Part shown: one piece after another, positions 20,777 through 64,000 of the stretch
Layout of the letters: every line of letters begins with the position of its first letter
Numbering within the stretch: the stretch's first letter is position 1
Assembly (NCBI GenBank): GCA_035771175.1
Contig: CM069596.1
Coordinates: 9,102,001-9,166,000, forward strand
Direction: 5' to 3'
Length of the DNA: 64,000 bases
Source: Paratinospora sagittata
Taxonomy: Eukaryota; Streptophyta; Magnoliopsida; Ranunculales; Menispermaceae
The notes under the pieces: generated by a model
Databases searched by the model: none
The model's input: the letters and a program-made list of their open reading frames with translations, nothing else
What the model was told of the DNA's origin: nothing
Translations under genes and position numbers: made by a program

Positions 20777-20867
20777 AGTTTTTTATTAATTATTACGTCA
20801 AGGGTGGATTCTTGATCTTGTTGGATTTTGAGCAATTGGCTAGTTTCTTTATACATATAGGGAAATG

Positions 20868-21047
20868 TTAATTTAAATACAAATTTTGCAATTACATGTA
20901 CAATTACACGTACATATTCATTAGATATTAATATTTTTTACACATTTCAAGGTGTATAATAAAAGATTCAATAGTTATATATATATGTGTGTAGTTGCAC
21001 ATGTAGTTGCATAAATTTTCAGTTAGATTAGAATTTTTCATAAATAT
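20868..21047. mobile_element. MITE-like element with imperfect terminal inverted repeats
   Basis: About 55 bp at the left (GGGAAATGTTAATTTAAATA, then a TTACATGTACAATTACAC segment) reappears inverted at the right (GTGTAGTTGCACATGTAGTTG, then AATTTTTC) with roughly 70% match. No clean TSD was found. Non-coding. Confidence 0.5.
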
Positions 21048-22029
21048 AAGATGACAATAATTTATTTTAATTTGTATTTAACTAACAATTTTTAGAACAA
21101 TAGAAGAAGGACACCAATACTAGTAGATTTATTAGTTGTCTTTCTTTTTTTTCTTTTCTTTTTTTCTGAAAAGATTTGTTTGTTATCTAGAGGACAAAAT
21201 ATTCCTAATTAATTATATAAATATGTGCAATTATAATTAGGTTTTGCATTTAAAATAAAATAAAATAAAATAAAATAAAAAAACAATTCGTATTTCCACG
21301 CACAAAAGAAGGTTCCCATGCCTAGGTTAGAACCAAAAGTTGTATCCACATATATTATCAATTCTTTTTTCCTTGATTAGATAAGGAAGAATATTTTTAT
21401 ATAAAGCAATTTGATAATAAAATTAGATAATGTAATATGAATGACAAGAACGTATTGACCGGGGCTCATCTATATTAATTTCATATTAGTCCGTGTTTGA
21501 ATATAGATGTGCTTGACGCGTAGTTCCGATTAAAGAAAGAGTAACGCTATGATGGTTGTACCGAGAAATTATAATACAAACTCACTTCTTAGATTTCAAT
21601 ATATATATATTTAAATTAGAAAATTCGTTCTAGGTATAAGTTTTTACAAAACAAAGACAAATTTTCCATTTTACATATATTTAACATTTAAACAGTCACT
21701 AAACCAGCAACCAATGATTGGAATCTGAATTATATAGAAGCTTATAGATTTTTTTTTATGTTTTTTGCAACGCCTTTCGAAATACTTAAATTAGAAGTAT
21801 TCAAACAAAAAAATAAAAGAAAAAAATTATAAGTTACTTCACTAGACGTTAGTTTTGATAAAGTTCACCGATTTTAGCAATAATTTCAAAATGCGCCCTT
21901 TGCCTGATTTAGAACGCTGGCCAGTTGTTTCGAATAGCAAGTCATGCAAGGCAGCCCCTACTGCCAAAATTTGTCTATTAAAATATTACTGAAATGATTC
22001 ATGTGTTTTTTTAAATAAATATACACCAA

Positions 22030-22034
<5 letters not shown>
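21048..22034. other. Intergenic DNA upstream of the cystatin
   Basis: AT-rich. Includes an (AAAAT)n run at about 21252-21283. No gene recognised on either strand. Confidence 0.5.

Positions 22035-22035
<1 letters not shown>

Positions 22036-22080
<45 letters not shown>
22036..22080. repeat. (AT)n microsatellite in the cystatin promoter
   Basis: About 36 bp of alternating AT followed by further TATA-like text, ending immediately upstream of the putative TATA box. Length variation here could change core-promoter spacing. Confidence 0.9.
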
Positions 22081-22083
<3 letters not shown>

Positions 22084-22096
22084 CTATATATAAATG
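22084..22096 (+). promoter_or_regulatory. Putative TATA box of the cystatin gene
   Basis: CTATATATAAATG lies about 57-69 bp upstream of the ATG at 22153, a spacing that allows a short 5' UTR. The adjoining AT repeat makes the exact element ambiguous. Confidence 0.5.
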
Positions 22097-22152
22097 CAGG
22101 GTACTAGTTACGGGAGTGAATCACACAACTTATACCATATTGATCAAAAGAG

Positions 22153-22515
22153 ATGAAAACTCAGTTATTCTTTTCAGCTGCTCTCCTTCTTCTTCTTGCT
22201 TTGCTTTTCAATGAAGCTTTTGCTGCTAACAGTAGTATAATAGCCGGTGGGTGGACCGATGCGGATCCGAAGGACAAACATGTGATTCAGGTCGCACAAT
22301 ATGCGGTGAAAGAGCACAACAATCAAAGCGGTGAAAGCATTAAGTTTAAAGATGTGATATTCGCTCAAAGCCAAGTGGTTGCAGGAGTGAATTATAGAGT
22401 AATAATTGTTGGGGACGATGGACGTGGGTATAGCAAGCTTTACCTGGCTAAGGTGTGGGAGAAGTCATGGCAACATTTCAAGAAGCTCACCTATTTCCTC
22501 GAACTTGTTCTCTAA
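22153..22515 (+). CDS. Secreted phytocystatin (cysteine protease inhibitor)
   Basis: Single-exon frame of 120 residues. Residues 1-24 form a signal peptide (basic start, long Leu run, AFA before the likely cleavage), so the product should enter the secretory route. All three cystatin contacts are present: N-terminal Gly-Gly at 32-33 followed by W34, the plant-specific helix VAQYAVKEHN (47-56), the first hairpin loop QVVAG (74-78), and the second loop Trp in KVWEKSW (W102). Members of this family block papain-like (C1A) proteases in development and in defence against insects and pathogens. The length fits a small one-domain secreted phytocystatin. It is the intact partner of the pseudogene at 7180, now ~15 kb away because of LINE, SINE and copia insertions between them. 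Confidence 0.93.
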   Translation: MKTQLFFSAALLLLLALLFNEAFAANSSIIAGGWTDADPKDKHVIQVAQYAVKEHNNQSGESIKFKDVIFAQSQVVAGVNYRVIIVGDDGRGYSKLYLAKVWEKSWQHFKKLTYFLELVL

Positions 22516-23054
22516 TGAGCTATATGCATGCCTCGACAGAGAGCTACCTAATTTCATCTTATCGTAATATCGTATGTTGCTTAGTGTTGTGTTTTAGTTT
22601 AATTGTGTCGTTTGATGTAAGTAGTGCATGCTCAAGAATGTATCAGCTTGTTTAATGTTTAATAAGGTCGTCCTCGTCAACTATGTAATGTTTGAGGATG
22701 CATTCATGTGATAGTTAGCTAGCTAGCTAATTTAAATGTACTTGAGCTTAATTAATTAATCATGGTATTGTGATGTTTTATATGGTGATCAGTATGCATG
22801 CATAGTTTGATGATAATTCGTTTATATTCTACTTTGATGTAATGTTATAGTTATTTGTTTTAAAGAAAGTTGGTCTGTATGTATTTGGAGCAAGAAAATA
22901 AAACAAAAAGTACTAAATGAAAGAAGGAAGAAGAAGAAGAACAAGAAGCTAGCTTTCTTATATTTGGCATGTGAAAGACAATAATATATAATAATTAAAT
23001 TCTTTAAAATTAGATTAAACATATTAACAAAAGTTAGTTATGTTAATTAATATA
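22516..23054. other. 3' flank of the cystatin, no further gene
   Basis: Contains the AATAAGGTC segment (22659-22667) shared with the pseudogene's 3' flank, which shows that the ancestral duplication covered more than the coding part. Otherwise AT-rich. Confidence 0.5.
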
Positions 23055-23245
23055 TATTGAACTCAAGCTCTTTAACATTACACCAATTGCTACAAATCTA
23101 ATGTGTCAAACTTTTATATCAAATTATAGTTTAATTGAAAAGTGTGTTGTTTTAATAAATTAAAGTTAAAATCTTATATGACAGTGACAGTGATTTATAA
23201 AAATTGATGTAATAATTTTAATTCTCTAACATTACTCTATTAAAA
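23055..23245. mobile_element. MITE family copy 1
   Basis: Shares ACCAATTGCTACAAATCTAA, a central GTGACAGTGATTTATAA and an inverted right end with the copy at 23801-23981. Right-end inverted match: TAATGTTAGAGAATT. Boundaries are approximate. Confidence 0.5.
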
Positions 23246-34799: not shown

Positions 34800-35210
34800 G
34801 AAATCATGTCAAGGTTGTTCCTTAACCTGTAAAAGGATCAAGGTTGTTCCTTAGCCTGTAAAAGGATCACGGTTGTTCCTTAGCCCGTAAAAGAATCATG
34901 GTTTTACCTCAGCTAGGAAAAGGGAAGGTACGTCCTCAACCTGTAAAAGGATAGGTTATCTCTAAACCTGTAAAGGAGAAATGGTTATTCCTCAGCCAGT
35001 AAAAGGGAAAGTTCATCATCAACCTGGAAAATGATAGGTTATCTCAGAACCTGTAAAAGAAAACGGTTCTTCCTTATCCCGTAAAAGGAAAACGATTCTT
35101 CCTTACCCAATAAAAGAAACATGGATTTTTCCACATCCCGAAAAAATGAAATGCGGTTCATCCTTAGCCCGCAAAAGGATGGGTTTGCCTTGAACATGTA
35201 AAAGTACAAG
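34800..35210 (+). repeat. Minisatellite in element I
   Basis: About a dozen units of ~30-40 bp with the core GGTTNTTCCTTAGCCYGTAAAAGGA. Units vary by substitution and small indels. Confidence 0.8.
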
Positions 35211-38545: not shown

Positions 38546-39365
38546 ATAGACTTCGTGATAAGAATTTTTTTTACTTTTCTTAAAATAAGTAACATTTATA
38601 AAGACGCCTCAATAGAAATAGGATTTGCATTAAATGCGTCTTCTTTCAAGACGTCTTCCACGTGAACAAAAAGAAAAAAAAAATTCAGTTAGCGCGACCA
38701 TGTGGACGAACATTGTTGAAAGTTTGGTATATGTGTTATTACTTCTAAAAGTTTGGTATTTGTGACATTAATTTTTTTTTTTTGGGTAATCAGGCCAAAA
38801 GCCCAGACTCTCGTTTCTTTCAAATTACTTTTATTTATATTTACATTTATTTACTTATTTATTTATGAGTACACTTTTATATATTTATTTAAAGAACTTT
38901 TAAGTATCCATCAAATACACTCACTCTTTCTACCTATTTAATAAATTTATAAACATGTGAGTAAAATGAGTATATTAGGTGGGTACATACATAGATACTC
39001 ACCTGCCCACTTATTTAATAAATTTTTCAAATATACCTATAATTGATATGATGCTTCTCAATTATTTTTCAAGGAACACGTATTAGAAATAAACAAAAGC
39101 AAGGGCTTACCAAACAGGATACGCGGCTGATCCCCTTTCCTCCCACCCAAAATCTCGATGTTCAACCAAAACTTTTTCCACGTCCCCACCTGTGAACAAC
39201 AAAGCTAACATTATCTCCCAATTCCCATTAGTCAATCTAAACAAAAACTGCACGACAACTTGATCGCTGCTTTCTCTGACTTTTCCCGCGTTTTCCCATC
39301 ACCCCCATCAGCAACCATTTCCAACGTCCTTCTCTTCCCTTCCCATTTTCTCTCCATCTCCGCCC
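38546..39365. other. Upstream region of the kinase gene
   Basis: AT-rich to about 39060, then C-rich leader-like sequence directly before the ATG. No convincing TATA box. The last ~100 bp (CT-rich, TTCCCTTCCC, TCTCTCC) may be the 5' UTR. Confidence 0.4.
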
Positions 39366-41159
39366 ATGTCCGGCCACCCATCACCACCACCGGTGTCCCA
39401 ACCTAACTCTCCGGCCAACACAAAACAACCGCTCTCCAACGCCACCACGGCCACCTCCTTCTCTTCCTTCCTTTGCTTCGCCGTCCTCTACCGAAAGCTT
39501 CTAAAACATAAACCAACTACTACTACCCCGGCGGACCTCAACCACCCGCACCGCTTCTCGTACTCCGTCCTCCGCCGTGCCACCTCCTCTTTCTCCGCCT
39601 CCAACCTCCTCGGTCAAGGCGGGTTTGGGTCGGTTTTTCGTGGCGTCTTACCTTCCGGCCTAGAAATCGCGGTTAAGCTCATGGATTCGGTTTCACTACA
39701 AGGAGAAAGGGAGTTCCAAAACGAGCTTTCTTTCTCCGAGAAGATCGATTCCGATCACATTGTTTCGCTTATTGGGTTCTCCCATGACTCGAAGAAGCAT
39801 GGGCAAAGGAATAAGTTGGTTTTGGTGTATGAATTGATGCATAATGGCAGCTTGCAGGACGCTTTGCTTAATAGGAAGTGCCCGGAGTTGATGGATTGGA
39901 AGAAGAGATTTGAGATTGCGGTTGATGTTGCAAAGGGTCTTGAGTTTCTTCATTTCGGATGTAATCCTCCGGTGATTCATGGCGACGTGAAGCCCAGTAA
40001 TGTTCTCTTGGATCAAAATTTCAATGCTAAGATTGCTGATTTTGGTCTTGCTCGAGTGAAGCATGAAGAAGATTGTGAGGCAGCGGTCCTTGTCGAAATT
40101 GAACCAAAAGGAGGACAAATTGGGAGTGATTGTAATGAAGATAATAAGAAGAATGAAGAAGAAGATGCCAAGTTTCTGAAGGAAGAAACTGCAAGTGTTA
40201 CTTCTAGTAGTAGTAATAGTAGTTTGGAGGAACAATCACCAGAGAGTTTTATGAAGGTTTTGGATTCAGAAGCATCACCAGAGATCGTTAAAATAGAGGT
40301 GGATCAATTGGGCATGATGGGCAACAAGAACATCGCTAAAACCCAGAAGAATTTCGACGAAATGAGTACGAATAATGGTGGGCATGAGAGATTAAAGGGG
40401 TCTGATCAGCCTGAAAGAGTTAAAGAGTATGTAATGGAGTGGATTTTAACTGAAATTAAGGAAAAGGAGAAGAAAAGTGACCAGGTTGCAAGAAAATGGT
40501 GGAGAGAGGAATTTTATGAGGAACTTGCTAAGAAGAAGAAGAACATGAAGAAGGAGATCGAATTGAATAGTGATGATTGGTGGCAGGATTATGAGGACCA
40601 GGACTTAGAACACAAGAAGAAGAAGAAAATTAAAGAGAAGAAGAAGAAGAACAGCCAGAGGAGGAGCAGTTGGGGCAGTATTGAATGGTGGTTGGATGGC
40701 TTCAGTGGAGAGTTATGGGCAAGTAATGTAACATCTAAAAGCAGTGTAAGTAGCAATCTCAGCATGAGAGGCACTGTGTGCTACACTGCACCAGAGTATG
40801 GGAGTTGTGTTGCTGATCAGAAGCAGCGGCTATCTGAGAAATGTGATGTATATAGCTATGGAGTTCTGCTTTTGGTTCTCGTCTCGGGTCGTCGGCCTCT
40901 TCAGGTGACCTTGTCATCACCCAAGTCTGAACTTGAGAGCGCCAACCTTATTTCTTGGGCGCGTCATCTTGCCTACAAAGGGAAGCTTGTTGATCTTGTT
41001 GACCCAAATATCCAATGTTTAAATCGCGAACACGCAGTTTTGTGCATCAAGGTTGCTCTGCTCTGCTTGCAGAGGTTGGCTTCCAAGCGACCCATGATTA
41101 GAGAAGTTCTAGAGATGCTTTCAGGAAAGTTTGATCTTCCAAGGAAAAGGTCCTCATAG
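39366..41159 (+). CDS. Receptor-like protein kinase with a large activation-segment insert
   Basis: Single-exon frame of 597 residues. A short hydrophobic stretch (32-42) before a basic cluster may be a membrane anchor. The kinase domain runs from about 79 to 590: glycine loop GQGGFGSV (83-90), ATP-anchoring K104 (IAVK), likely helix-C E120, catalytic HGDVKPSN (205-212), DFG (225-227), TAPEYG (474-479), DVYSYGV (494-500). The catalytic Asp D207 is present, but the preceding Arg is Gly, a non-RD kinase. About 250 residues separate DFG from APE where ~25-30 are usual. The insert is acidic and Ser-rich, then Lys/Trp-rich (EYVMEWI, KWWREEF, DDWWQDY, EWWLDGF). This architecture matches the Arabidopsis At2g45590/At4g25390/At1g80870 group, whose substrates are not established to my knowledge. 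A start within an open, C-rich leader and the lack of stops support an active gene. Confidence 0.9.
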   Translation: MSGHPSPPPVSQPNSPANTKQPLSNATTATSFSSFLCFAVLYRKLLKHKPTTTTPADLNHPHRFSYSVLRRATSSFSASNLLGQGGFGSVFRGVLPSGLEIAVKLMDSVSLQGEREFQNELSFSEKIDSDHIVSLIGFSHDSKKHGQRNKLVLVYELMHNGSLQDALLNRKCPELMDWKKRFEIAVDVAKGLEFLHFGCNPPVIHGDVKPSNVLLDQNFNAKIADFGLARVKHEEDCEAAVLVEIEPKGGQIGSDCNEDNKKNEEEDAKFLKEETASVTSSSSNSSLEEQSPESFMKVLDSEASPEIVKIEVDQLGMMGNKNIAKTQKNFDEMSTNNGGHERLKGSDQPERVKEYVMEWILTEIKEKEKKSDQVARKWWREEFYEELAKKKKNMKKEIELNSDDWWQDYEDQDLEHKKKKKIKEKKKKNSQRRSSWGSIEWWLDGFSGELWASNVTSKSSVSSNLSMRGTVCYTAPEYGSCVADQKQRLSEKCDVYSYGVLLLVLVSGRRPLQVTLSSPKSELESANLISWARHLAYKGKLVDLVDPNIQCLNREHAVLCIKVALLCLQRLASKRPMIREVLEMLSGKFDLPRKRSS

Positions 41160-42729: not shown

Positions 42730-43354
42730 GAAGAACATTAACAACAACAATAATACTAAGATATGTGAGAGACATGCGCGAGAGACGACGAAGATTAGTA
42801 GCAACGTCAAAGATCAGGAATGGTGGGTTCGAGCAGCGGCGACTGAAACACGGTAGCAATGGAGACAAAGGCGTCGACGACGATTAGGATATCGGCAGTG
42901 CCGATAAGGAAGATGCAGTAGTCGATGGTGATATAGTAGCAGTGATGAAGACGTACGCACCAATCAGCAACACGAATAATGGCGATGAAGGCCAACGAGG
43001 AAGGTTCCGGCAATGAAGGCCAAAATAAAACAATTTCGACGATGTAGGTCGGAAGAAAAGAAAATTTTCCCAGTTGTACGAGTTTAAAGCTCTGATACCA
43101 TGTTAAATACTAATAAAAGACACAAAAATGTAACGTGGTTCGGCTCCAAGGCCTACGTCCATGGGAGAAGAGAAAATATTTTCTTATTCTTAATGATGTC
43201 TTAATGGAGGGACACCATATATATAAACATACAGGGCTATGCACACATATAGCTATAATTACAATTTTAGTAACTGCTAAATAAAACGACTACTAAAATT
43301 ATCATATTTCCTTAAAGGAAATAAGTCCCACAGATTTTGCTCTTTTCCACAACA
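42730..43354 (-). mobile_element. Copia remnant: one LTR, primer site and leader
   Basis: The LTR at 43101-43354 (TGTTAAATAC...CACAACA) is the reverse complement of the element B LTR family. It is followed (minus strand) by the primer site at 43100-43089 (TGGTATCAGAGC, perfect) and an untranslated leader rich in GACGA/GAAGGCC repeats that resembles the leader of element J (49155-49420). Everything downstream is lost, and no second LTR adjoins it. Confidence 0.75.
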
Positions 43355-47459: not shown

Positions 47460-49692
47460 TGTTCTAAAATAAAATAATAAAGAAACACAAAGATATAACG
47501 TGGTTCGACTCTATGGCCTATGTCCACGGGAGAAGAGAGGAGAATTCTTCATATTCGTGATAATGCCTCAATGGAAGAATGCCAAATAAATAGACTTACA
47601 GAGTTGTTCACCGTATAGTAACTTTTACAATTTCAGTATCTTTTAGATATGGCAACTCCTAAAAATAATTTTTCCTCTAAATGGCAACGCAATCCCTCAG
47701 ATTTCTCTCTTCTCCGCAACACTCCCCTCAAGCTGGTGAATAAAGGTTTACCATTCTCAGCTTGGACATACTTGTTTGGAATGCAGTATGGCTTAACCCT
47801 TTAGTGAGCACATTAGCAAGTTGATTATTGGTAGACACATATGGAGTACAGATCAACCCACTATCAAGTTTTTCTTTAATGAAGTGTCTATCAATCTCGA
47901 TATGCTTTGTTCGATCATGTTGAACTGGGTTATGAGCAATGCTTATTGCAGACTTATTGTCACAATAGTCTCATAGGGCCATCCCAGTGTATCTTCAAAT
48001 CTGTCAAAATTATCTACAACCATAATAGCTCACAAACCCCCTGTGTCATTGCACGGAATTATGCTTTAGCACTAGATCTGGCCACAACATTCTGCTTTTT
48101 ACTTCGCCATATCACCAAATTCCCCCCAAGAAACATACAGTATTCAGTAGTTGACCTTTTGTCAAGTGTCAACTACTGAACTAGCATAGTCTGCATCCGT
48201 ATATGCTTCAAGAACCACTCCTGTGTGTCGTTTAAATAAGATGCCCTGTCTTGGAGTCCCTTTAAGATATTGTAAGACACGGTTAACTGCTTGCAAATGA
48301 ATATCTTTAGGGTTGTGTGACTGATTACACTCGCTGCATATGCAATATCAAGTCTCGTGTGAGAGAGATAAATGAGTCTCCCTACTAGTCTTTGATACAT
48401 CTCCTTATTGACAGTAGGTGCTTCTTCAGCTTCTCCAAGCTTATGATTGGGATCAATAGGTGTGGTTATTGGTTTGCATGCTAACTTCCTTGTTTCTTTA
48501 AGGAGATCTATAAGGTACTTCTGTTGAGAAATAAAAATTCACTGTTTGGAATGTGCCATTTCAATTCCAAGAAAGTACTTCAACCTTCCTAGACCCTTGA
48601 TCTCGAATTCTTTGGTTAAAGACTGTTTCAGGCTCTGTTTCTCATGCTCATCATTTCCAGTCATAATGATGTCATCTACATATACCAAGAGCGATGTAAC
48701 TCCCCTTGACACTGAGTGCTTAATGAATAATATATGATCTCCTTGGCTCTGCTTATATCCCTTTTCTTTCATTACTCTTGCAAAGCGACCAAACCATGCT
48801 CTTAGAGATTATTTAAGTTCGTACAACACCTTTTTCAGTTTGCACACTATACCGGTGGTTAGACTGCTTTTGAATCCATAAGGAACCTTCATATAGATCT
48901 TTTCTTCCAGTTCTCCGTGAAGAAAGGCATTTTCACATTAAATTGTTGTAAATCCCAGTCGTAGTTGGTAGCTAAAGAGAGCAATACTCGGACCGTGTTC
49001 ATCTTGGCAACCAGTGCAAATGTCTCCAAGTAGTCTACATCATATGTCTGAGTGTACCCTTTCGCTACTAATCTTGCCTTGTATCTCTCCAGTGACCCAT
49101 CTGCTCTGTACTTAACAGTATAAACCCAGGTTTCTTCGAGCAGCACGAACGACAACGATGGTGATCAACAACAGTAGTAACAACGACAACCAGCAGCGTC
49201 AATGGTGACAACTGCGGGTTTCAGTGGCGATGGGTGGCATAGTCGCAACATCAATGAAGGCTATGATGAACAGTACTGGTAGCGACGCCGATGAAGATGA
49301 TGAAAGTTCACACAACGACAGCGATGAACGTCGGCCACAAAGATTCAGCGATGAAGGCCGGCACAAAAGATTTTGGCGATGAAGGCCGAAAAAATATTCC
49401 CAGTTGTACGAGCCTAAGGCTATGATACCATGTTGTAAAATAAAACAATAAAGAAACATAGAGATATAACGTGGTTCGACTCTATGGCCTACGTCCACGG
49501 GAGAAGAGAGGAGAATTCTGCTTATTTGTGATAATGCCTCAATGGAGGAACACCAAATAAATAAACTTACAGAGTTGTTCACCGTATAGTAACTTTTACA
49601 TTTTCAGTATCTTTTAGATATGGCAGCTCCCAAAAATATTTTTTCCTCTAAATGGCAACGCAATCCCTCAGATTTCTCTCTTCTCCGCAACA
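47460..49692 (-). mobile_element. Element J: internally deleted copia, perfect TSD
   Basis: Two 262-bp LTRs (47460-47721 and 49431-49692), both ending CTTCTCCGCAACA and starting TGTT, with about 16 differences by eye (~6%), flanked by the exact TSD CTTAT (47455-47459 and 49693-49697). Minus-strand order: 5' LTR, primer site (49430-49419, TGGTATCATAGC), leader, RT, RNase H, polypurine complement CTCCCCTCAAGCTGG, 3' LTR. Gag, protease and integrase are missing; the leader joins directly to RT near 49155. Confidence 0.92.
47740..49155 (-). pseudogene. Element J: RT-RNase H pseudogene
   Basis: 49155-48889 carries the RT start (ETWVYTVKYRADGSLERYKA, then LVAKGYTQTYDVDYLETF) and breaks by a small deletion near 48935. 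48772-48539 has the catalytic YVDDIIMTGND and GLGRLKYFLGIEMA. 48400-48173 has YQRLVGRLIYLSHTRLDIAYA. RNase H follows toward 47760 in broken frames. Frames change at least twice, so no product is expected. Confidence 0.85.
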
Positions 49693-51517: not shown

Positions 51518-52718
51518 TTATGGTACCATTGAAAGAAAATCATCCTCAGACAGCAAATCAGTGAAAGTGCCCCTTTTGGCAGACAAGCGTCGATCATCCA
51601 TTGGACATGATGAACCCCTGTCACTGTGCAGATAAGTAGGAGTTCCATGCGTGGAAGACTGTTTCAAATGTGAACCCTTAGGCCCCTCACTATTGGTTAC
51701 TAACTTCTTAGGAAGAGACCCCATCATGGATTCCCCGTTTTGCATGTGCATATTACTTGTTTGGGGTTGTGCCACATTTGGGTAAAGCATAGGAGGATAG
51801 AACATAGGTATCCTGGACCATCCTGCATGCGATGTGGGTTTGGTATGAGCATATCCTTCATCAGGCAAAAGAAGTGGAGACTCACTATTAGATCTTCCTA
51901 GAAGTTCATCCCTAAAGAAGGTACTCCTGCATCAAATCATAAGGCTGGTGGTAAAAAAAAATTGAAATAATGCAACAAAAACAAATATAAACATGAGATC
52001 AGTACCTTTTCCTTATCCCATCCACATCAACCCTTCCATCAATTAGTTCACAGAGAGCCTCGGCAATCTCTGGAGATAACTCCTGTAGAAAGCATGTGAA
52101 CCACCATCACATATTCAAACATGTCATTTGTTTGAGTCATTAATCTAAAAGCAGTTAATATTAGGAACACCTGGCAGTCTCTACTAATTTTAACCGGCTT
52201 GTAGTCATTTAACGGATTCTTGAGATGAAGGGTTTTCTGGAAAGGCAAATTATTCAATTGCAACCATTTAACTTTGAAACTACTTCCCCATGGATTGTTT
52301 CCACCAGAAACTCCAGTCCAAACATTGTCCCGCCTCCAACCAACAGATGACATCATTTGGGCATACCCTTGGAAGAAGCCACTCATGTTGACACTAAATA
52401 TTAGAATTACTCTATCAGAATTCTGCAAAGACAAACATATGTTATTCTACAGCAACAAATAGGAAATGCATCACATTTTTCCCAAATATTATCTTACATG
52501 AAAGGCCTCCTCCAAAATGGGTTCATTCATTACTTGAGTAGCCCATATTCCTTGTTCGATAGATAGTTGAATATTCTGATGGTTCAAACTTTTAATGACA
52601 AAATATCTTGTATGCTGGCTATAAATATCCTTTGAACTCATATTCTCAAACCCACTGGAAGAATGTTCTTTTACTCTGGGGGTATAATATTCTTCATGTT
52701 CTATGTAGCTTGAGCTTC
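51518..52718 (-). CDS. YTH-domain m6A reader (YTHDC type), 3' exons
   Basis: Four exons with GT-AG borders join in phase: 52718-52498, 52422-52171, 52082-52006, 51926-51518 (stop TAA at 51518-51520). They encode the end of a variable N-terminus, the whole YTH domain and a Pro/Ser-rich tail. Landmarks: TRYFVIKSLNHQNIQ, GIWATQ (first cage Trp), VILIFSVNMSGFFQGYAQM, SVGWRRDNVW (likely second cage Trp), FKVKWLQLNNLPF, HLKNPLNDYKPVKISRDCQ, SPEIAEALCELID. This matches the nuclear-type plant group typified by Arabidopsis At4g11970 rather than the ECT group. The YTH fold binds N6-methyladenosine in RNA. The first exon listed opens with a split codon, so at least one upstream exon with the start is missing from my model. 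No stop or frameshift in the domain. Confidence 0.85.
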
Positions 52719-53388
52719 CTGAGAAGAGAATTCTTTACTCATCAATGTATTGTTCAAACTAAAATGGTACAGAAAAATCGAATTCATATTAACCAAAGTA
52801 ATAACAAGAGTTGCCTAAAGATAAAGCCCACACAGCTCAATGATTTTGACAATGGGATGCAAGCTGTGAAGTCAAAGAAGAAAAAGGGGGGCTACTCTGG
52901 AAAGTCACACAAATGGGCTCATGAACCATCTTATTCAACCACAGCACTTCATTCATACTCATTTTTTTATAGCTACTAAAATTATCTAAATTCAAGGAGG
53001 CTTTCAAACTTCCATAGAATTCCTCAATATGAGTTTGATATGATATTCCTTATCATTTCTAAAGGATATCACTGATACTGGTAATGTTATTTTTTCTCCC
53101 CTCAAAATTTCTGCCATGCACAAAAAAGTAACAACGCCAGAGCATAGATGATTTAAAGATTTTCCACCACTGAAATACAATAAGTTATATGTATATAAAT
53201 ATATATTTGTTGTGACTCTTAGCTTTCTAGCTTCTCCTCAATATCTTCAAGCAATAGATGATAAATTTAAAGCCCTTTGCATAGGTTTAGAGAAAAACAA
53301 TTGAGTCCTTTTCAAGAGAGTTCATACTCACTTTAAAAGAATATACGTATAGCTACTCTGTCTTTTTGGTTTTATTTTGTTTTGTTTA
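52719..53388. other. Intron or 5' part of the YTH gene, unresolved
   Basis: A pyrimidine-rich acceptor (TTCTCTTCTCAG) ends at 52719 on the minus strand. The plus-strand ORF at 52608-52979 overlaps the YTH exon and is not supported. The missing 5' exon(s) could lie here or beyond the transposons to the right. Confidence 0.35.
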
Positions 53389-54876: not shown

Positions 54877-54894
54877 AATTACCTACTTTAAATA

Positions 54895-56679
54895 GGGATT
54901 TTTGTAGTTATGGTCTTCTAGCTATCTGGATCTAGAGCAGAGGTCCCCAAGTTTCGAATATTAGCATTTGGATCCTCAACTAATCAACCTGTCACCTGTC
55001 AATCAAACCACAGTTGGTCAAGGGTTACACTTTACCATTTTTCCCTTCTCCCATTTAGCAATCACGTTATCTCTCAGTCAAAATGTTTACCGATCGGTCA
55101 AAATGTTGATCGATCGATAAGTAACTTCAAATATTCATTTACATACATTGAACGTTTAACAGCCACTAGACCGATCACCGATGATCGAAAATTAACTTAA
55201 AGCACATGGTTTTGTAGATCTTTTCTTCCTCTTTCCAACGCCTTTTCAATCACTCAAATCGGAGTCCAGGTGAAAAAGTTATGGCTATTTGAAGTTAAAT
55301 AATCATTTACTTAACGATCGATCAACATTTTGACTGATTGGTTACTCATCGGTAAGTAATTGACCGATCGGTCTAAATATTGACCGATCGATAAGTAACT
55401 TCAAATAGCCATGACTTTTTCATCCGGACTCCGATTTGAGTGATTCAAAAGGCGTTGGAAATAGGAAGAAAAGATCTATAAAACCATGTGCTTTAAGTGA
55501 CTTTCCGATCACCGGTGACCTGTCCAGTGGCTGTTAAACTTCAATGTAGCCACCAGACCGTCACCGATGATCAAAAAGTCACTTAAAGCACATGGCTTTA
55601 TAAATCTTTTCTTCATCTTTCCAACGTCTTTTGAATCACTCAAATCGAAGTTTGAATGAAAGAGTTATGGCTATTTGAAGTTACTTACCTATCGGTCAAC
55701 ATTTTGACAGATCGGTGAACATTTTGACCGATCTACTTCAAATGACCATAACTATTTTGTTTTAATTCTGATTTGAATGATTCAAAATGCATTGGAAAAA
55801 GGAAAAAAAAAGTTCTACAAAATCATATGCTTTAAGTGATTTTCCGATCATCAGTGACCAGAACCGGTGGCTGTTAAACGTTCAATATATGTACCCTTTT
55901 AGGCTTTTACATACATTGAACGTTTAACAACCATTGGACCGGTCACCAGTGATCAAAAAGTCACGTAAAGCACATTATTTTGTAGATCTTTTCTTCCTTT
56001 TTCCAATGCCTTTGAATCACTCAAATCGGAGTCTGGATGAAAAAGTTATAACTTTTTGAAGTTACTTACCGATCAATCAACCTTTTGACTGATCGATCAA
56101 TTACTTACTGATCGGTAAGTAAATGATTATTTAACTTCAAAGAACCATAACTTTTTCATCCGAACTCCGATTTGAGTTATTCAAAAGGCGTTGAAAAGAG
56201 GAAGAAATAATCTACAAAACCATGTGCTTTAAGTGACTTTTCGATCACCGGTGACCGGTCCAATGGCTGTTAAACGTTCAATGTATGTAAAAGGGTAAAT
56301 ACATTGAACATTTAACAGCCACCGAACTGTCACCGGCGATCAGAAAGTCACTTAAAGTACATGGTTTTGTAGATCCTTTTTTCCTCTTCCAACGCCTTTT
56401 GAATCACTCAAATCGGAGTCCGGATGAAAAAAGTTATGGCTATTTGAAGTTATTTACCGATCGGTCAATATTTTAACCGATTGGTAAATATTTTGACCGA
56501 AAGATCACATGATTACTAAATGGGAGAAGGGCAAAATGGCAAAGTGCAACCCTTAACCGACTGTGATTTGATTGACAAGTGACAGGTTGATTAGTTGAGG
56601 ACCCAAACACTAATTTTTGAAACTTGGGGACCTTTGTTCTAGATCCAAATAGATAGAGGACCATAACTCTAAAAATCCC
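54895..56679. mobile_element. Complex fold-back element with seven alternating inverted units
   Basis: The outer inverted repeats are ~175 bp (54895-55074 and 56508-56679; GGGATTTTTGTAGTTATGG at the left, GGGATTTTTAGAGTTATGG at the right when inverted). Flanking 9-mers CTTTAAATA (54886-54894) and TTTTAAACA (56680-56688) agree at 7 of 9, as in MULEs. The interior is a ~160-bp unit repeated seven times in strict alternation: forward 55139-55298, reverse 55395-55548, forward 55547-55686, reverse 55734-55892, forward 55907-56066, reverse 56132-56288, forward 56299-56454. Units are joined by spacers full of CCGATCGGT/ATCGATCGAT palindromes. No ORF of note. Confidence 0.85.
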
Positions 56680-56688
56680 TTTTAAACA

Positions 56689-57155: not shown

Positions 57156-57793
57156 GTTTTACCAATGTTTTCAAGACATCATGATGATAACTAGGCAATT
57201 GTCCCCATTTAGGCAAAGCGGTGCCTAAGCATCACTTAGGCGAGGCCTAGACATTATACACAATATTTGTTTATAGCTCCCTACATAAATAATAAATTAG
57301 TTTTACGTATACAAACCTTGTATACGTAATTACATAAATATTCAATAATACAAAAGTTAAATATTGTGCCAAAAAAAAAAGATTAACCATATTTTACACT
57401 TCTCAATTTTCTATCCACAAATTAATACTAGAAAAAAAAACATATTAACAAAAAAGAAAAGTTGGCATATAGTGTAAGTATAATGATTTAAAAAGTCATG
57501 TTTGATGTAATACTTTATAAGTATAACAAATGGAAAATATGTAATAAAAATAAGATATAAAATCAGAGTCAAAAAATAAGAAAAAACAACTTTCATAAGG
57601 GAAATTAAGTATATTGCTTAAGTTAAAAGTTACGGTCATATTGAAGCTATAAAATCATAAGGTAACAATATAAAGAAAAAGAGCCTTAATGCTTTATAAA
57701 TTTACACCGATCCCCTTATATTTTAAGAAATTTCAAAGAGCCCCACTACTCGCCTCAAGTATGATATAAGTGATTTAGTTCCAAATGGCCTAG

Positions 57794-58281
57794 TGTCACA
57801 GTCATGTTGTCCCATGCACCGTCATGTATTTTGTTTTGTATTTCGAGTGGCATTTTTGTAATAAAGGCCCAGTATGATTGGCCTCACATTTTGATGTTTC
57901 CTTTTGGAGATAGGAGAAAAGCTTAACATCTACCTTGTAGGGGAGGTGGTAGTCGCCTAGAGTAGTGCATAGGTGTTCCCCTACATTCGAGTCCCAAGTA
58001 AAGCTACCAACGTGTGTTGCTTTGTCCCTTGTTGCTACCCACTATTGCTAGTGGTGTGGTGCTCTAGTGATACCTGCTCCCCTAGGGTGCGTGTGTGTTC
58101 TTTCGTGTTGACCCCAGTGTATTGTAACAGTTCATTTGATATTAATAAAATCATTATTTCCATTACTTGTTGCCTTCTACTTTGTGTTGCTATTTCTTGT
58201 TACTTGCAGTTTGGCTGACCTTGCTAGTGAATTGCCGGGTGCCGCACGGGAATTGCCTTGTTCCAAAGTTGTCCCGTGACA
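57794..58281 (+). repeat. 5' LTR of element E
   Basis: 488 bp, same length as the 3' LTR. The differing sites are at about 57800, 57946, 58003, 58021, 58236 and 58248. A polyadenylation-like TTAATAAAATCATT lies near 58142. Confidence 0.95.
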
Positions 58282-58283
58282 CG

Positions 58284-58295
58284 TGGTATCAGAGC
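58284..58295 (+). other. Primer binding site of element E
   Basis: TGGTATCAGAGC, a perfect match to the plant initiator-Met tRNA primer site, two bases after the LTR. Confidence 0.92.
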
Positions 58296-58306
58296 CTAGC
58301 AAGAGA

Positions 58307-61300
58307 ATGGCTGCAGAGAAGAGATCCACCAAGGATAGGTTGGAAGAACTGGAAGCTCGAGCAACGCGTTCCGAGGAGTTGGAAGCGAAGTTTGCACAAC
58401 TGGTTGCACGAATAAAACTGATAGAGAATGCCCAACAATCGGGTAGTGAGGTTTACGAAGCCTTGGCAGAGGAAAACCAAGCTTCGTTCCAGGTGGTACG
58501 AGAGCAGCTCGATGAGATGAATGCTAGGGTGAATGTCCTTACCAAACTAGCGGGTTCGACTGGTCCGAAGGAGACCGAGAGTCGAAGGAAGGTTAAGGTA
58601 CCAGAACCAAAGCATTACAATCGAGCCCGAGATGCCAAGGAATTGGAGAATTTCTTGTTCGATCTCGAACAATATATGAATGCGGTCAAGCTTGAGACGG
58701 AGCAAGATAAGGTCACAACGGCCGCTATGTTCTTAGCGGGGGATGCCAAGTTGTGGTGGCGAACTCGTTACACTGCGATTCAGAACGGATCAGTGACTAT
58801 TGATACTTGGGAAGACCTCAAGAAGGAACTCAAGAATCAGTTTCTACCTGAGAATGTGGGATTCTTGGCTAGGCAAAAGTTGAGGCGGATCCAACATACG
58901 GGTACCGTTCGAGAGTACGTGAAGCAATATTCGACTCTCATGCTAGACATTCACGGTATGGCTGAGGAAGATAGATTATTCTTCTTCCTGGATGGGTTAA
59001 AACCGTGGGCTCAAGCTGAGTTACAGAGGCAGAAGGTCCTGGATCTCGCGTCCGCTTACGCAGCTGCCGAAAGATTAACTGATTATACCACCAGCTTTGG
59101 TGAAAAGAAGAAAATGGTATCGAGTGGCAACAATCCAAAGCCTTCATCGGGGAAGGACGAGGGCAGTACCAACAAGCCAAAGAGCCAGTTTAGCAAGGGA
59201 GCCTCGTCTTCCAAGCAACCCTCCACATCCTTCACTTCAACAGCAAGTTACAAAACAAGGGAGTTGAAGTGCTTCTTGTGTGCAGGGCCACATCGAGTAG
59301 CTGTGTGTCCCCAAAAGAGTGGCCTCAATCCATTGCGAGCACTAACTGTTAGCCAAGAGCCTTCGCAGGAGACCTCCCAATCTCATGCCGAGTCAGATGA
59401 GCCGAGGATGGGGGCTCTGCGGTTATTGAATGCCTTGAAGGGGCAGGTTGCCGACAAGCAGACGAATCCATCAAGAGGTTTGATGTTTGTTGAACTCAAA
59501 ATCAGTGGCAAGATGACTCGTGCCATGGTAGACACGGGTGCCACCCACAACTTCATTGCTGAAGGTGAAGCTCAACGCTTGGGTCTCAAGTTAGAAAGTG
59601 ACTCAAGCAAGATCAAAGCTGTAAACTCCGCTGCGAGGCCTGTCCATGGTGTTGCGAAGGCCGTACCCATAGAGGTGGGTAGGTGGTCAGGTAGGACCAA
59701 CTTCATGGCTATTCCCATGGATGATTTCAAGGTGATATTGGGTCTAGAGTTCTTGCATGAAGCGAGAGCAGTGCCAATGCCCTACTTGGAGGCCCTGTGT
59801 ATGTTCGGAGACTCTCCTTGTATGATTCCAACGACGGCCATTGAATCGAAGGACAAGAGAATTTCCGCTCTACAGTTGAAGAAAGGTCTCAAGAAGGGGG
59901 AGGAGACATACTTGGCTACCTTGGTGGTAGACGAGCGAGAAGAGGAGTCACAACCTGTTCCAGATGCAGTGACGAAGCTACTGTCGACTTTCAAAGATGT
60001 GATACCTAGAGAACTCCCGAAGCAACTCCCTCCACGAAGGCTTATCGATCACAAGATTGAGTTGATTCCGGGGGCGAAACCGCAAGCTAGCCGTCCCTAC
60101 AGGATGGCACCTCCAGAGCTAGCTGAGTTGAGGAAGCAGTTGAGTGAGCTCATTGACTCAGGCTTCATTCGACCATCAAAGGCACCATACGGAGCACCGG
60201 TATTATTTCAGAAGAAACATGATGGGAGCTTGCGTATGTGTGTTGACTACAGAGCTCTAAACAAGGTAACTGTTCGAAACAAGTACCCTATTCCTTTGAT
60301 TGCAGATTTGTTCGATCAATTGGGTGCAGCTCGGTACTTCACGAAGCTTGACTTGCGGTCGGGGTATCATCAAGTTCGAATCGCCGAAGGAGATGAACCT
60401 AAGACCACTTGTGTCACACGGTATGGAGCGTTTGAGTACTTAGTGATGCCATTTGGCTTAACTACTGCTCCAGCTACTTTCTGCACCCTGATGAATGAAA
60501 TCTTCTACGAGTACTTGGACAAGTTTGTGGTCGTGTACCTTGATGACATTGTGATATATAGCTCTACTCTGGAGGAGCATATGGAACACTTGCGGATCGT
60601 GTTCGAATTGCTGCGGACAAATCACCTTTATGTGAAGGAGGAAAAGTGTTCTTTTGCCCAACAGGAGATCGCTTTCTTGGGCCACTACATTGGTGGTGGC
60701 AAGCTGAAGATGGATATGGCGAAGGTTCGCGCCATTCATGAGTGGAAGACCCCAACAACAGTGTCTGAGTTGCGGTCCTTTCTTGGTTTAGTGAACTACT
60801 ATCGGAAGTTTATCAAGGATTATTCTGCACGTGCCTCACCTTTAACCGACCTTTTGAAGAAAGAACAATCGTGGGTTTGGTCAGAAGAGCGCCAGCAGGC
60901 ATTCGATGATCTGAAATCAGCAGTGATGGAGGATCCAGTCCTTGCTCTCCCTGACTTGAGCAAGCCCTTTGAGGTACAAACAGATGCTTCAGATTTTGTA
61001 CTTGGTGGAGTGTTGGTCCAGGAGGGACATCCTTTGGCGTACGAGAGCCGGAAACTTTCTGAAGCAGAACGCCGCTACACAACTCAAGAGAAGGAGTTAC
61101 TCGCGGTGATCCATTGCCTTCGGACATGGAGGCATTATTTGCTGGGTTCAAAGTTTGTAGTGAAGACGGACAACATAGCCATCTCTCACTTCTTAACCCA
61201 GAAGAAGCTTACTTCAAAGCAAGCTCGGTGGCAGGAGTTCCTTTCAGAGTTCGACATGGTCCTTGAGTACAAGCCAGGCCGAACTAACCAAGTTGCCGAT

Positions 61301-61720
61301 GCACTGAGTCGCAAGGCAGAGCTTGCCACCTTATTAGTTGAAGCTCAGAGGAGCATCACCAAGATGCAGACTACCTTACAGGCCAGAATTAGAGATGGGT
61401 TGCAGATGGACCCTCAAGTCAAGACTCTTTGGCCACTAGTAGAAGCTGGTCGGACGAGACGGTTCCATATCAAGGATGGGTTACTTGTTACAAAAGGAGG
61501 ACGTCTCTATGTACCTCGCACTGGTGGACTTCGCAGAGAGCTGATGCGGGAATGCCATGACACTCAATGGGCCGGCCATCCGGGTAGTCATCGCACATTG
61601 GCCCTACTTGAACGGGGCTACTATTGGCCGAATATGCGGGATGATGTCAGTGAATATACCAAGACTTGCCTCACTTGTCAGCAGGACAAGGTGAGCGAGA
61701 CAGACCTACAGGGCTCTTAG
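58307..61720 (+). CDS. Element E gag-pol: gag, protease, RT, RNase H, integrase zinc region
   Basis: Uninterrupted frame from the first ATG after the primer site. In order: gag capsid region (about 58720-59010, with [11 protein letters not shown] and [14 protein letters not shown]), CCHC knuckle [13 protein letters not shown] (about 59270), aspartic protease VDTGATHNF (about 59530), RT with [18 protein letters not shown] and catalytic YLDDIVIYS (about 60537-60563), RNase H with [18 protein letters not shown] and ADALSRK, then the integrase HHCC zinc-binding segment (HPGSHRT...CLTC, 61570-61680). The frame ends prematurely at 61718-61720 after an apparent one-base loss near 61693. All catalytic residues up to RNase H are present. 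Confidence 0.93.
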
Positions 61721-62850
61721 AACCACTGCCAGTTCCTAAGTGTCCGTGGGAAAGTGTGACGATGGACTTCATATCTGCTTTGCCAAAAGTGGGGGAGTAT
61801 GGCTCCATTATTGTTGTGGTGGACCGGTTCTCGAAGTATGCAACCTTCATTCCAGCCCCCAAACACTGTTCAGCAGAGGAGACAGCCTAACTTTTCCTAC
61901 GCCATGTGGTGAAGTATTGGGGCGTACCTCAGACTATCGTCAGTGACAGAGATTCAAGGTTTACAGGACGTTTCTGGACAGAACTCTTTAGACTCTTGGG
62001 ATCTCATCTGAACTTTTCCACCAGTTGTCATCCCCAGACAGATGGCCAGACAGAGCGGTTCAATGCATTACTGGAGGAATATTTCAGGCATTTTGTGAGT
62101 GCCAACCAGAAGAATTGGGTGAACTTGTTAGATGTTGCTCAGTTCTGTTTCAATTTGCAAAAGAGCTCTTCAACCTCCAGGAGTCCTTTTGAGTTGGTGT
62201 TAGGCCAACAACCTTTGACACCTCACACAGTGGATGCGGGTTATAGTGGGAGCAGCCCACGAGCTTATCAGTTTGCCAAGGAGTGGCAGAAGACCAGTGA
62301 AGTGGCTCAAGCTTACCTGGAGAAGGCGTCGAGGAGAATGAAGAAATGGGCCGATCAGAAGAGGAAGCCAGCACCGTTCCAGGTCGGAGATCACGTCTTC
62401 ATCAAGCTTCAACCTGATGTTATGAAGTTCTTCAGAAAGGTGAACAAGAAGTTGGTTCGCAAATTTGAAGGGCCATTTCCCATCACAGAGCGTGTGGCGA
62501 AAGCAGCATATCGGGTTGAGTTACCAGCGTAGTGGAAGAATCTTCATCCAGTGTTTCACGCCAGCAACCTGAAGCCGTGTCATGTTGATTGGGAGGATTC
62601 AGATCGCGCAAGCTCTTCAAGACCAACAGCCAACATCAAGTGCAGACCTGTTCGTGAGGTGGAGTATATCGTAGCAGATCGTCGGGTTCCCGGACCTTCA
62701 CAGAAGCAGTTTCAGTCAGAATACTTAGTCAAGTGGAAGGACCTGCCTGAAGCCGAAGCAAGTTGGGAGCCAGAGAGTTCGTTGACGGGGCATGAAGCAG
62801 AGATCCTCAAGTACTTAGCCAGTCCGCCAACAAGGGTGTCGTCGTATTAA
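61691..62850 (+). pseudogene. Element E integrase core and chromodomain, broken
   Basis: Continues the polyprotein in the next frame: integrase catalytic Asp (VTMDFI, 61769-61786), second Asp region (VSDRDSRF), the GQTERFN segment with the third acidic residue, the GPY/F module (KLVRKFEGPF), and a C-terminal chromodomain (SEYLVKWKDLPEAEASWEPE, about 62719-62778). Two nonsense changes interrupt it, TAA at 61888 and TAG at 62530; both fit single transitions in codons conserved in the family. It ends at TAA 62848-62850. In chromoviruses this domain steers integration toward heterochromatin. Confidence 0.9.
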
Positions 62851-62861
62851 GTGGGGGAGTC
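62850..62861 (+). other. Polypurine tract of element E
   Basis: AGTGGGGGAGTC lies directly before the 3' LTR, overlapping the polyprotein stop codon. Confidence 0.85.
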
Positions 62862-63349
62862 TGTCACGGTCATGTTGTCCCATGCACCGTCATGTATTTT
62901 GTTTTGTATTTCGAGTGGCATTTTTGTAATAAAGGCCCAGTATGATTGGCCTCACATTTTGATGTTTCCTTTTGGAGATAGGAGAAAAGCTTAACATCTA
63001 CCTTGTAGGGGAGATGGTAGTCGCCTAGAGTAGTGCATAGGTGTTCCCCTACATTCGAGTCCCAAGTAAAACTACCAACGTGTGTTGCCTTGTCCCTTGT
63101 TGCTACCCACTATTGCTAGTGGTGTGGTGCTCTAGTGATACCTGCTCCCCTAGGGTGCGTGTGTGTTCTTTCGTGTTGACCCCAGTGTATTGTAACAGTT
63201 CATTTGATATTAATAAAATCATTATTTCCATTACTTGTTGCCTTCTACTTTGTGTTGCTATTTCTTGTTACTTGCAGTTTGGCTGACCTTGCTAGTGAAT
63301 TGTCGGGTGCCGCACAGGAATTGCCTTGTTCCAAAGTTGTCCCGTGACA
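62862..63349 (+). repeat. 3' LTR of element E
   Basis: 488 bp, colinear with 57794-58281, no indels. Confidence 0.95.
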
Positions 63350-63403
63350 CTAGGCCATGGACTGGCCATGGACTAGCCATGGCCCTCAAAACATTGGTTT
63401 TAC

Positions 63404-64000
63404 CCATACAAACCCTGTATGTAATTACACAAATATTCCATAATATAAGAGTCAAACCTTGTGTAACAAAAAGGGCAGCTCAGAGCATAAAGCTCCTGCT
63501 CATGTAAAGTCCCGAGAAGGGTTGGACCACTATTGGGTATATTGTAAGTAGTCTTACCCTGCATCCCTAGATGTTGTTTCCATGACTCAAACCTATTATC
63601 GCCTGGTCAAACGACGACACATATCGTTGGGCCAAGGCTCCCCTTCACCTAGTATAAGAAAATAGTAACTATATTCTACACTTTTCAATTTGTGTCCACA
63701 AATTAAAAACCAGAAAAACATATTAAAATATAACACAAGTTGGCACATCATTGCATAATGAAATTTTACATATCTAGAATTAGATTTTATGCCAATGTTT
63801 AAACTATACAATCACATACATAACAATATGAACTTATGAAGAAAATAGAACCTTACACTTTATATATTTACCCTAACCCCCTTATACTTTTAAAAAAACT
63901 TTAAAGAGCCTCACTGCATACCTCAAGTATGACCTAAGTGTTGGAATAGTCATTGCCTAGGCGTGCCCTTGACATGCTCACAAGTCACAATGGAAAAATG
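63404..64000. repeat. Outer K-like element, runs off the window
   Basis: Matches the inside of K (about 57300-57790) in the same direction: ATACAAACC.TGTA, CACTT.TCAATTT, TCCACAAATTAA, CCCCTTATA.TTT, CCTCAAGTATGA. So K appears to have inserted into a relative of itself. It contains the SINE at 63466-63650. The right end lies outside the window. Confidence 0.6.
63466..63650 (-). mobile_element. Au-type SINE
   Basis: On the minus strand: GGGAGCCTTGGCCCAACGAT head, GTTTGAGTCATGGAAACAAC (B box and following family text), GCAGGGTAAGACT, TGGTCCAACCCTTCTCGGGA, then GAGCTGCCCTTTTT, the hallmark Au tail ending in T-run. It interrupts the K-like repeat. The flanks (GTGTAACAAAA and GTATAAGAAAA) could be a decayed TSD. 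Confidence 0.8.

What the first reader, a model, noticed from the sequence alone, without database searches (positions are those of the whole stretch)
54895..56679. Fold-back element of seven alternating inverted ~160-bp units within long terminal inverted repeats
Seven copies of one unit alternate forward/reverse without exception, joined by spacers made of CCGATCGGT-type palindromes, inside ~175-bp outer inverted repeats with a near 9-bp TSD. A transcript across it would fold into several long hairpins, and the DNA could form cruciforms. The strict alternation suggests growth by replication or repair through hairpins rather than ordinary tandem duplication. I know of fold-back MULEs but not of this exact layout.
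Basis: partly seen in the sequence, partly recalled or inferred. Interest (0 to 1): 0.75.

Follow-up and report, generated by a model that had tools for sequence, protein, structure and literature searches.

The report
Fold-back transposon with nested palindromic arms
In a plant genome sits what looks like an old, gene-less jumping-gene relic that is nearly one big palindrome made of smaller palindromes, an unusual variant of the known fold-back transposons.

Summary
The structure is real. At 54895-56679, seven ~160-bp units alternate in orientation (21 of 21 pairs 77.6-92.0% identical). A 12-bp stub of an eighth unit lies at the left end. The outer inverted repeats run 239 bp ungapped at 87% identity. 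Inverted self-matches cover 99.4% of the element.

Units join head-to-head across short loops and tail-to-tail across CCGATCGG-type spacers. So each arm of this large palindrome holds a terminal domain and two palindromic dimers (period ~385 bp). Repeating such a dimer gives strict alternation automatically; alternation alone is no evidence for hairpin growth. Orientation markers are mixed: some favour mirror-image duplication, others tandem duplication.

Most likely it is a dead, non-autonomous fold-back DNA transposon, Mutator-like in outline: GGG...CCC ends, long TIRs, a 7/9 TSD, no long reading frame. MULE membership is unproven. The host genome could not be searched (13 of 13 calls unanswered), so no second copy is known; a diverged solo unit lies at 21673-21795. 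Verdict: new variant of a known kind.

The parts
54886..54894 (.). possible left target-site duplication CTTTAAATA
   Evidence: 7 of 9 match to the right flank; chance 0.0023 fixed, 0.037 with slack
54895..55076 (+). left outer terminal domain (GGGATTTTT...)
   Evidence: part of a 239-bp ungapped inverted repeat, 31 mismatches
55077..55121 (.). terminal spacer S0, CCGATCGG-type palindromes
   Evidence: sequence; inverted to S7, 90.5 vs 37.5 direct
55122..55133 (-). U0 stub: first 12 bases of a deleted reverse unit
   Evidence: TAACTTCAAATA equals the start of reverse units
55140..55300 (+). unit U1
55301..55396 (.). tail-to-tail spacer S12
   Evidence: inverted to S56 103.5 vs direct 80.0
55397..55548 (-). 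unit U2
55548..55683 (+). unit U3, head truncated by about 20 bases
55684..55734 (.). central spacer S34, axis of the whole palindrome
   Evidence: direct to S7 84.0 vs 51.5; inverted to S0 78.0 vs 51.0
55735..55893 (-). unit U4, the most diverged unit
   Evidence: 77.6-81.5% to the other six
55894..55907 (.). head-to-head loop L45
   Evidence: with adjoining unit heads, inverted to L67 84.5 vs direct 75.0
55908..56065 (+). unit U5
56066..56130 (.). tail-to-tail spacer S56
   Evidence: direct to S34 69.0 vs 40.0 and to S7 57.0 vs 29.5
56131..56289 (-). unit U6
56290..56295 (.). head-to-head loop L67
56296..56453 (+). unit U7
56454..56503 (.). terminal spacer S7
56504..56679 (-). right outer terminal domain (...AAAAATCCC)
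56680..56688 (.). possible right target-site duplication TTTTAAACA
21673..21795 (+). diverged solo relative of the unit, not part of the element
   Evidence: nhmmer E 3.7e-9, 32.3 bits (bias term 21.4); best in 50 Markov windows 9.1 bits

Best explanation
It is an old, non-autonomous fold-back DNA transposon, most probably of the Mutator-like (MULE) kind, in an early-branching eudicot. Its two arms (about 0.81 and 0.96 kb as they stand) have a terminal domain of ~180 bp, a palindromic spacer and two palindromic dimers of a ~160-bp unit, with no coding middle.
Inferred working: a transposase made elsewhere bound the terminal domains, and perhaps the repeated CCGATCGG spacers, and moved the element by cut-and-paste. 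The dimers multiplied inside the arms by recombination or repair between repeats, perhaps helped by hairpins. Palindrome centres were then trimmed (U0 lost, U3 head lost, loops shortened).
Shown: the anatomy, the star-like unit divergence, and the lack of a reading frame over 92 aa. Inferred: transposition, MULE parentage, how the units multiplied. Any read-through RNA would be a long hairpin and a likely Dicer substrate; this is untested.
For: Inverted self-matches cover 99.4% of the element. 239-bp TIRs with GGG/CCC ends and a 7/9 TSD. Unit-to-unit K2P of 0.086-0.284 over 21 pairs brackets the TIR-to-TIR value of 0.147, and the unit tree is a star, as expected if the units were near-identical when the element last inserted. 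Stop-to-stop frames of 60 aa or more that touch the element are three (92, 61 and 71 aa), made of TIR and unit sequence. MuTAnT MULEs have GGGG/CCCC ends, 9-nt TSDs and foldback modules (PMC4486113).
Against: No second copy, no empty site and no transposase are known. The TSD is imperfect. No relative of the frames read through the TIRs was found. The terminal domain shares no detectable sequence with the unit, unlike Tetris, whose terminal domain and arm repeats share a 37-bp stretch.
Confidence: 0.7

Rival explanations
1. On how the units multiplied (compatible with the best explanation): tandem duplication, by unequal exchange or slippage, of a 385-bp palindromic dimer inside the arms, as proposed for Tetris; alternation is then automatic.
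For: Regular spacing of 386, 382 and 387 bp for forward units. S34, S56 and S7 are direct to one another (S34-S56 69.0 vs 40.0; S34-S7 84.0 vs 51.5; S56-S7 57.0 vs 29.5). U1-U3 vs U4-U7 aligns better direct, 599.5 vs 584.0. Unit-number change by duplication of one arm repeat is reported for Tetris (PMC4079207).
Against: S12 is inverted to S56 (103.5 vs 80.0) and to S7 (64.5 vs 49.5), and L45 is inverted to L67 (84.5 vs 75.0); explaining these needs two later flips.
Confidence: 0.5
2. On how the units multiplied (compatible with the best explanation): nested inverted doubling. One unit was copied as a mirror image three times in succession (1 to 2 to 4 to 8), through hairpin-primed repair or template switching, so that units, dimers and halves are each palindromes.
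For: Eight units (seven plus stub) = 2^3. S12 vs S56 and L45 vs L67 inverted. Whole arms inverted 960.5 vs 626.0 (driven by the outer TIRs); U1-S12-U2 vs U5-S56-U6 inverted 550.5 vs 519.5; U4-U5 vs U6-U7 inverted 409 vs 376; U2-U3 vs U4-U5 inverted 334.5 vs 326; U2-U3 vs U6-U7 direct 404 vs 394, as alternation of dimers predicts. Foldback inversions through ssDNA hairpins are shown in yeast (PMC7467729; abstract).
Against: U1-U3 vs U4-U7 aligns better in direct order (599.5 vs 584.0), though the diverged U4 biases this. S34, S56 and S7 are direct to one another; the trimmed loop L23 leans direct to both L45 (14.5 vs 11.5) and L67 (17.5 vs 11.5). The unit tree has no supported branch. Recombination between neighbouring inverted arms can flip a marker.
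Confidence: 0.25
3. Not a transposon: a local inverted-repeat expansion or satellite-like array with no mobile ends.
For: No other copy seen; imperfect TSD; a solo diverged unit in the window shows that the unit exists outside such TIRs.
Against: The terminal domain is unrelated to the unit, is found in the window only at the two ends in inverted order, and its homology fades at GGG/CCC beside a 7/9 TSD.
Confidence: 0.1
4. The locus is kept as an active long-hairpin RNA gene feeding small RNAs.
For: Extreme folding energy. Transitions at 55 of 438 C/G cells vs 14 of 639 A/T cells, compatible with methylation.
Against: An excess of transitions is not special: copia-like fragments in the same window show 51 transitions to 10 transversions, the TIRs 26 to 5. 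Compensatory change that would keep pairing was not tested.
Confidence: 0.05

Closest known systems
MuTAnT (Mutator-like, Medicago truncatula; PMC4486113, two sections and passages seen)
   Same: Plant element, mostly non-autonomous; foldback made of modules (the figure legend speaks of four similar segments with arrows for orientation); G-run/C-run ends; 9-nt TSD
   Different: 90% of MuTAnTs are 200-300 bp, they target TA microsatellites, and there are 218 copies and a putative autonomous partner; here 1.8 kb, seven ~160-bp units plus a stub, one known copy, AT-rich but not microsatellite flanks
FARE foldback family of Arabidopsis (Windsor and Waddell 2000; not held, seen only as cited in PMC4486113, PMC3169594 and PMC4079207)
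   Same: Plant foldback with long palindromic ends, related to MULEs
   Different: Sequence and unit layout could not be compared
Tetris (Drosophila virilis; PMC4079207, abstract and two sections seen)
   Same: Non-autonomous foldback; arm = terminal domain plus ~220-bp repeats of variable number; 8-10-bp TSD
   Different: Tetris repeats are tandem and there are inner and middle domains; here the repeat is a palindromic dimer and there is no middle domain
Galileo (Drosophila; PMC3573991, abstract start and passages seen)
   Same: Long internally repetitive TIRs; ~210-bp repeats in the F group, suggested to hold extra transposase sites
   Different: P-element superfamily; direct repeats
Tm1 Mutator/Foldback (root-knot nematodes; PMC3169594, passages seen)
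   Same: Composite TIRs, mostly 9-bp TSD, Mutator (Phantom) parentage
   Different: TIRs of 13-15-bp tandem repeats; animal host
MULEs with multiple long TIRs (PMC3310237, abstract and two sections seen)
   Same: Plant MULEs in which terminal sequence is repeated within the element
   Different: There the TIR itself is duplicated, mostly in tandem; here the outer TIR is single at each end and an unrelated unit is repeated
Foldback4 (Drosophila melanogaster; PMC2955051, passages seen)
   Same: Palindromic ends over 400 bp in most copies, and internal modules repeated a varying number of times
   Different: Animal family; its modules are not described in those passages as an alternating array

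Membership tests
Fold-back (FB-like) DNA transposon | Very long inverted repeats making up most of the element | tested here: met
   99.4% of 54895-56679 in inverted self-matches; 239-bp TIRs plus inverted internal blocks
Fold-back (FB-like) DNA transposon | Arms with internal repeats | tested here: met
   Dimers at 382-387-bp spacing
Fold-back (FB-like) DNA transposon | Mobile: several copies with the same ends | not tested
   Own-genome search unanswered in 13 of 13 tries; within the window the TIR is found only in this element
Mutator-like element (MULE) | Long TIRs (PMC3310237; about 100 bp or more is recalled) | tested here: met
   239 aligned bases, 31 mismatches
Mutator-like element (MULE) | Target-site duplication of typically 9 bp (PMC4486113) | tested here: inconclusive
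   7 of 9; P 0.0023 to 0.037; palindromic TTTAAA confounds
Mutator-like element (MULE) | MURA-type transposase in the family | not testable with these tools
   No frame over 92 aa in the element; no genome to search for a partner
MULE with multiple TIRs (PMC3310237) | Internal repeat similar to the outer TIR over at least 100 bp | tested here: not met
   Unit consensus vs both TIRs, both strands: scores 14-19, below the shuffle maxima of 22-28 in 4 of 4 comparisons (300 shuffles each)
MITE | Short (under about 0.8 kb, limit recalled) with many copies | tested here: not met
   1785 bp; copy number unknown

The most novel reading that the evidence does not exclude
A transposon that grew by successive mirror-image doubling (1, 2, 4, 8 units), giving palindromes at three nested levels. 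Hairpin-primed or template-switch synthesis during transposition or gap repair would be a recurrent way of lengthening transposon arms, leaving alternating marker orientation and trimmed centres as its signature.
Probability: 0.2. Interest if true: 0.6.

Novelty: new variant of a known kind. Interest (0 to 1): 0.35.

Why it matters
How transposons with long or multiple TIRs lengthen their arms is unsettled: the papers seen here propose unequal exchange, slippage, recombination or acquisition. An element whose repeat is itself a palindrome, with orientable spacers and loops, gives a readable record that could separate tandem from mirror-image growth once several copies are compared. It also shows that 'strict alternation' needs no special mechanism if the repeating block is a palindromic dimer, a useful caution for similar finds. 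Long hairpins of this sort are candidate sources of small RNAs near genes.

Tried and rejected
Homology of unit and outer TIR: none above shuffles. Phylogeny of units: star, no supported branch; shared changes do not group by orientation or mirror position. C-to-T decay as a sign of hairpin-driven methylation: a C/G-site excess is there, but copia-like fragments in the same window show the same transition excess (that control has no ancestor, so it cannot tell C-to-T from T-to-C or give sequence context), so I dropped it. Rfam: no match at gathering scores in the window. Searches with exact unit patterns in viral contigs and in bacterial/archaeal genomes, and with the whole element in plasmids: nothing; none of these collections is meant to hold plant nuclear DNA, so this says little. 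Unit oligonucleotides as text in papers: 0 papers. Translated TIR frames against 5.8 billion proteins: 6 candidates, none scoring. Idea that the YTH-domain gene nearby is of a zinc-finger (CPSF30-like) type with its fingers beyond the element: a CCCH pattern scan gave two hits (20985 and 29079), neither near it. C-terminal frame of that gene: 1 candidate, no homologue.

Literature: seven topical searches and one for sequence strings, of a library without most subscription journals. In the listings I saw no element described as alternating inverted units joined by palindromic spacers; most listed papers were not opened, so this is no proof that none is in print. The FARE paper is not held. The tomato foldback paper (Rebatchouk and Narita 1997) was seen only in a reference list; its element name, SoFT, is recalled.

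The odds for mirror doubling went from 0.3 to 0.25 and for the novel case from 0.25 to 0.2, and those for tandem duplication from 0.45 to 0.5.

Full report
WHAT IS THERE. The window is plant nuclear DNA. A kinase frame at 39264-41159 has its best-scoring relatives mostly in early-branching eudicots (Macleaya 52% identity, Nelumbo 50%, Stephania 55%; 120 of 2481 hits listed). The species is not known. The nearest gene recognised codes for a YTH-domain protein on the minus strand (Pfam matches in frames at 52051-52446 and 52492-52734), so the element lies about 2.2 kb upstream of its last recognised exon. Whether it lies in an intron or upstream of the whole gene was not settled. A Ty3-type retrotransposon with 98.8% identical LTRs begins about 1.1 kb to the right of the element.

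ANATOMY. 54895-56679 begins GGGATTTTT and ends AAAAATCCC. The outer inverted repeats align over 239 bases without a gap, with 26 transitions and 5 transversions. They consist of a terminal domain of about 180 bp, a spacer of CCGATCGG-type palindromes with a 20-bp rhythm, and the first 12 bases of a unit in reverse orientation. Inside lie seven units of about 160 bp, alternating in orientation. Units meet head-to-head across loops of 0, 14 and 6 bp, and tail-to-tail across spacers of 96, 51 and 65 bp (coordinates). The left end has lost nearly all of one reverse unit (U0), so the ancestor probably read: terminal domain, S0, R0F1, S12, R2F3, S34, R4F5, S56, R6F7, S7, terminal domain. Inverted self-matches cover 99.4% of this stretch. 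Of 35 tiles over 1-62475, the two overlapping the element reach 64.4% and 4.6%, and the best of the others 12.7%; 20 Markov surrogates reach 0.

WHAT THE ALTERNATION MEANS. Forward units are spaced 386, 382 and 387 bp apart. The repeating block is a palindromic dimer (R then F) plus spacer, and duplication of such a block, direct or inverted, preserves strict alternation. What can discriminate is the orientation of asymmetrical parts, and here the record is mixed. For mirror growth: S12 and S56 match better inverted (103.5 vs 80.0), sharing AAATAATCATTTACTT next to U1 in one and next to U6 in the other; S12 is also inverted to S7 (64.5 vs 49.5); L45 and L67, taken with the adjoining unit heads, match better inverted (84.5 vs 75.0). 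On blocks, U1-S12-U2 vs U5-S56-U6 is inverted (550.5 vs 519.5), U4-U5 vs U6-U7 inverted (409 vs 376), U2-U3 vs U4-U5 inverted (334.5 vs 326) and U2-U3 vs U6-U7 direct (404 vs 394), which is the pattern of alternating dimers; whole arms are inverted (960.5 vs 626.0), which the outer TIRs drive. For tandem growth: S34, S56 and S7 are direct to one another (69.0 vs 40.0; 84.0 vs 51.5; 57.0 vs 29.5), so that S12 alone could have flipped; the trimmed loop L23 leans direct to both other loops; and U1-U3 vs U4-U7 aligns better direct (599.5 vs 584.0), where the inverted alignment must use the diverged U4. S12 vs S34 (63.5 direct, 59.5 inverted) and S0 vs S12 (58.0, 59.0) tell nothing. Recombination between neighbouring inverted arms can flip a loop or spacer. 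I hold tandem growth of the dimer somewhat more likely, and mirror doubling possible, not shown.

HISTORY. The unit tree (seven units and the solo relative) is a star with 0 of 5 inner branches supported. Unit pairs differ by K2P 0.086-0.284 (21 of 21 pairs) and the two TIRs by 0.147. The simplest reading is that the units were nearly identical when the element last inserted and have decayed since. Changes concentrate at C and G: transitions at 55 of 438 C/G cells against 14 of 639 A/T cells. Copia-like fragments in the window also show a transition excess (51 transitions, 10 transversions in 582 aligned bases), so I read it as general decay of repeats and not as a special fate of this hairpin. 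The head-to-head centres look unequally trimmed (U0 gone, U3 head gone, L67 shorter than L45), as is common for palindromes (general knowledge).

THE UNIT OUTSIDE THE ELEMENT. A profile of the seven units finds one significant relative elsewhere in the window, 21673-21795, at 32.3 bits (bias term 21.4) against 9.1 bits for the best match in 50 Markov windows; three further hits have E of 1.3 to 9.6. It is single and 61.5-68.4% identical to the units. Among the 25 longest of 57 inverted pairs in 20400-23200, none involves it. The unit family is thus older than this element, or this is a relic of a related one.

FOLDING. RNA of 55735-56452 folds into one hairpin pairing, as I read the brackets, U4 with U7 and U5 with U6 (-396.6 kcal/mol; mean of 20 shuffles -146.3). 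55140-55683 pairs U1 with U2 (-279.1; mean of 100 shuffles -111.7). 55077-56500 gives -772.3 and -821.6 kcal/mol on the two strands (no shuffles at that length). This follows from the inverted repeats and says nothing about expression.

WHAT IT IS. Fold-back transposons have long arms, often a terminal domain plus internal repeats. Tetris has ~220-bp repeats inside its arms and 8-10-bp TSDs (PMC4079207; abstract and two sections). The F group of Galileo has ~210-bp repeats (PMC3573991; passages). Foldback4 of Drosophila has palindromic ends and a varying number of inner modules (PMC2955051; passages). Tm1 has composite TIRs, mostly 9-bp TSDs and Mutator parentage (PMC3169594; passages). The plant family MuTAnT is built of foldback modules, with GGGG/CCCC ends and 9-nt TSDs (PMC4486113; two sections and passages). 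The element here fits this group. What differs is that its arm repeat is a palindromic dimer joined by palindromic spacers, and that no middle domain is left. It does not fit the multi-TIR MULEs (PMC3310237; abstract and two sections), because the repeated unit is unrelated to the outer TIR.

LIMITS. The host genome could not be searched in 13 of 13 attempts, so copy number, ends and TSD rest on one locus. MULE membership is likely from outline, not shown.

Noticed in passing
window 21673-21795: Solo, strongly diverged relative of the fold-back unit; the bases after it (AAGTTACTTCAC) resemble the start of the spacer.
   Followed up: partly
window 57794-63350: Ty3-type LTR retrotransposon with 489-bp LTRs 98.8% identical, 1.1 kb to the right of the element; its coding region is split between a frame ending at 61720 and one starting at 61891. 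Weaker direct repeats (about 78%) flank it within 57374-57772 and 63656-63940, as if it had inserted into an older repeat.
   Followed up: no
window 14846-15052: Another near-palindrome: 85-nt arms, 84% complementary, 37-nt loop; it lies in the most palindromic tile not overlapping the fold-back element.
   Followed up: no
window 15829-16144: Two copies of a 160-bp unit in tandem, 85% matching.
   Followed up: no
window 10641-11644, 43101-43249 and 47480-49530: Copia-like fragments (label from my reading of the translated frames, not from a family search) in inverted order about 31-39 kb apart, 78-91% alike over the listed arms.
   Followed up: partly
window 34809-35177: Degenerate 29-bp tandem repeat array, part of it also scored with an 83-bp period.
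   Followed up: no
window 52051-52734: Two exon-like frames of a YTH-domain gene on the minus strand; its N-terminal exons were not recognised in the window, so the fold-back element may lie in an intron or promoter of it.
   Followed up: partly
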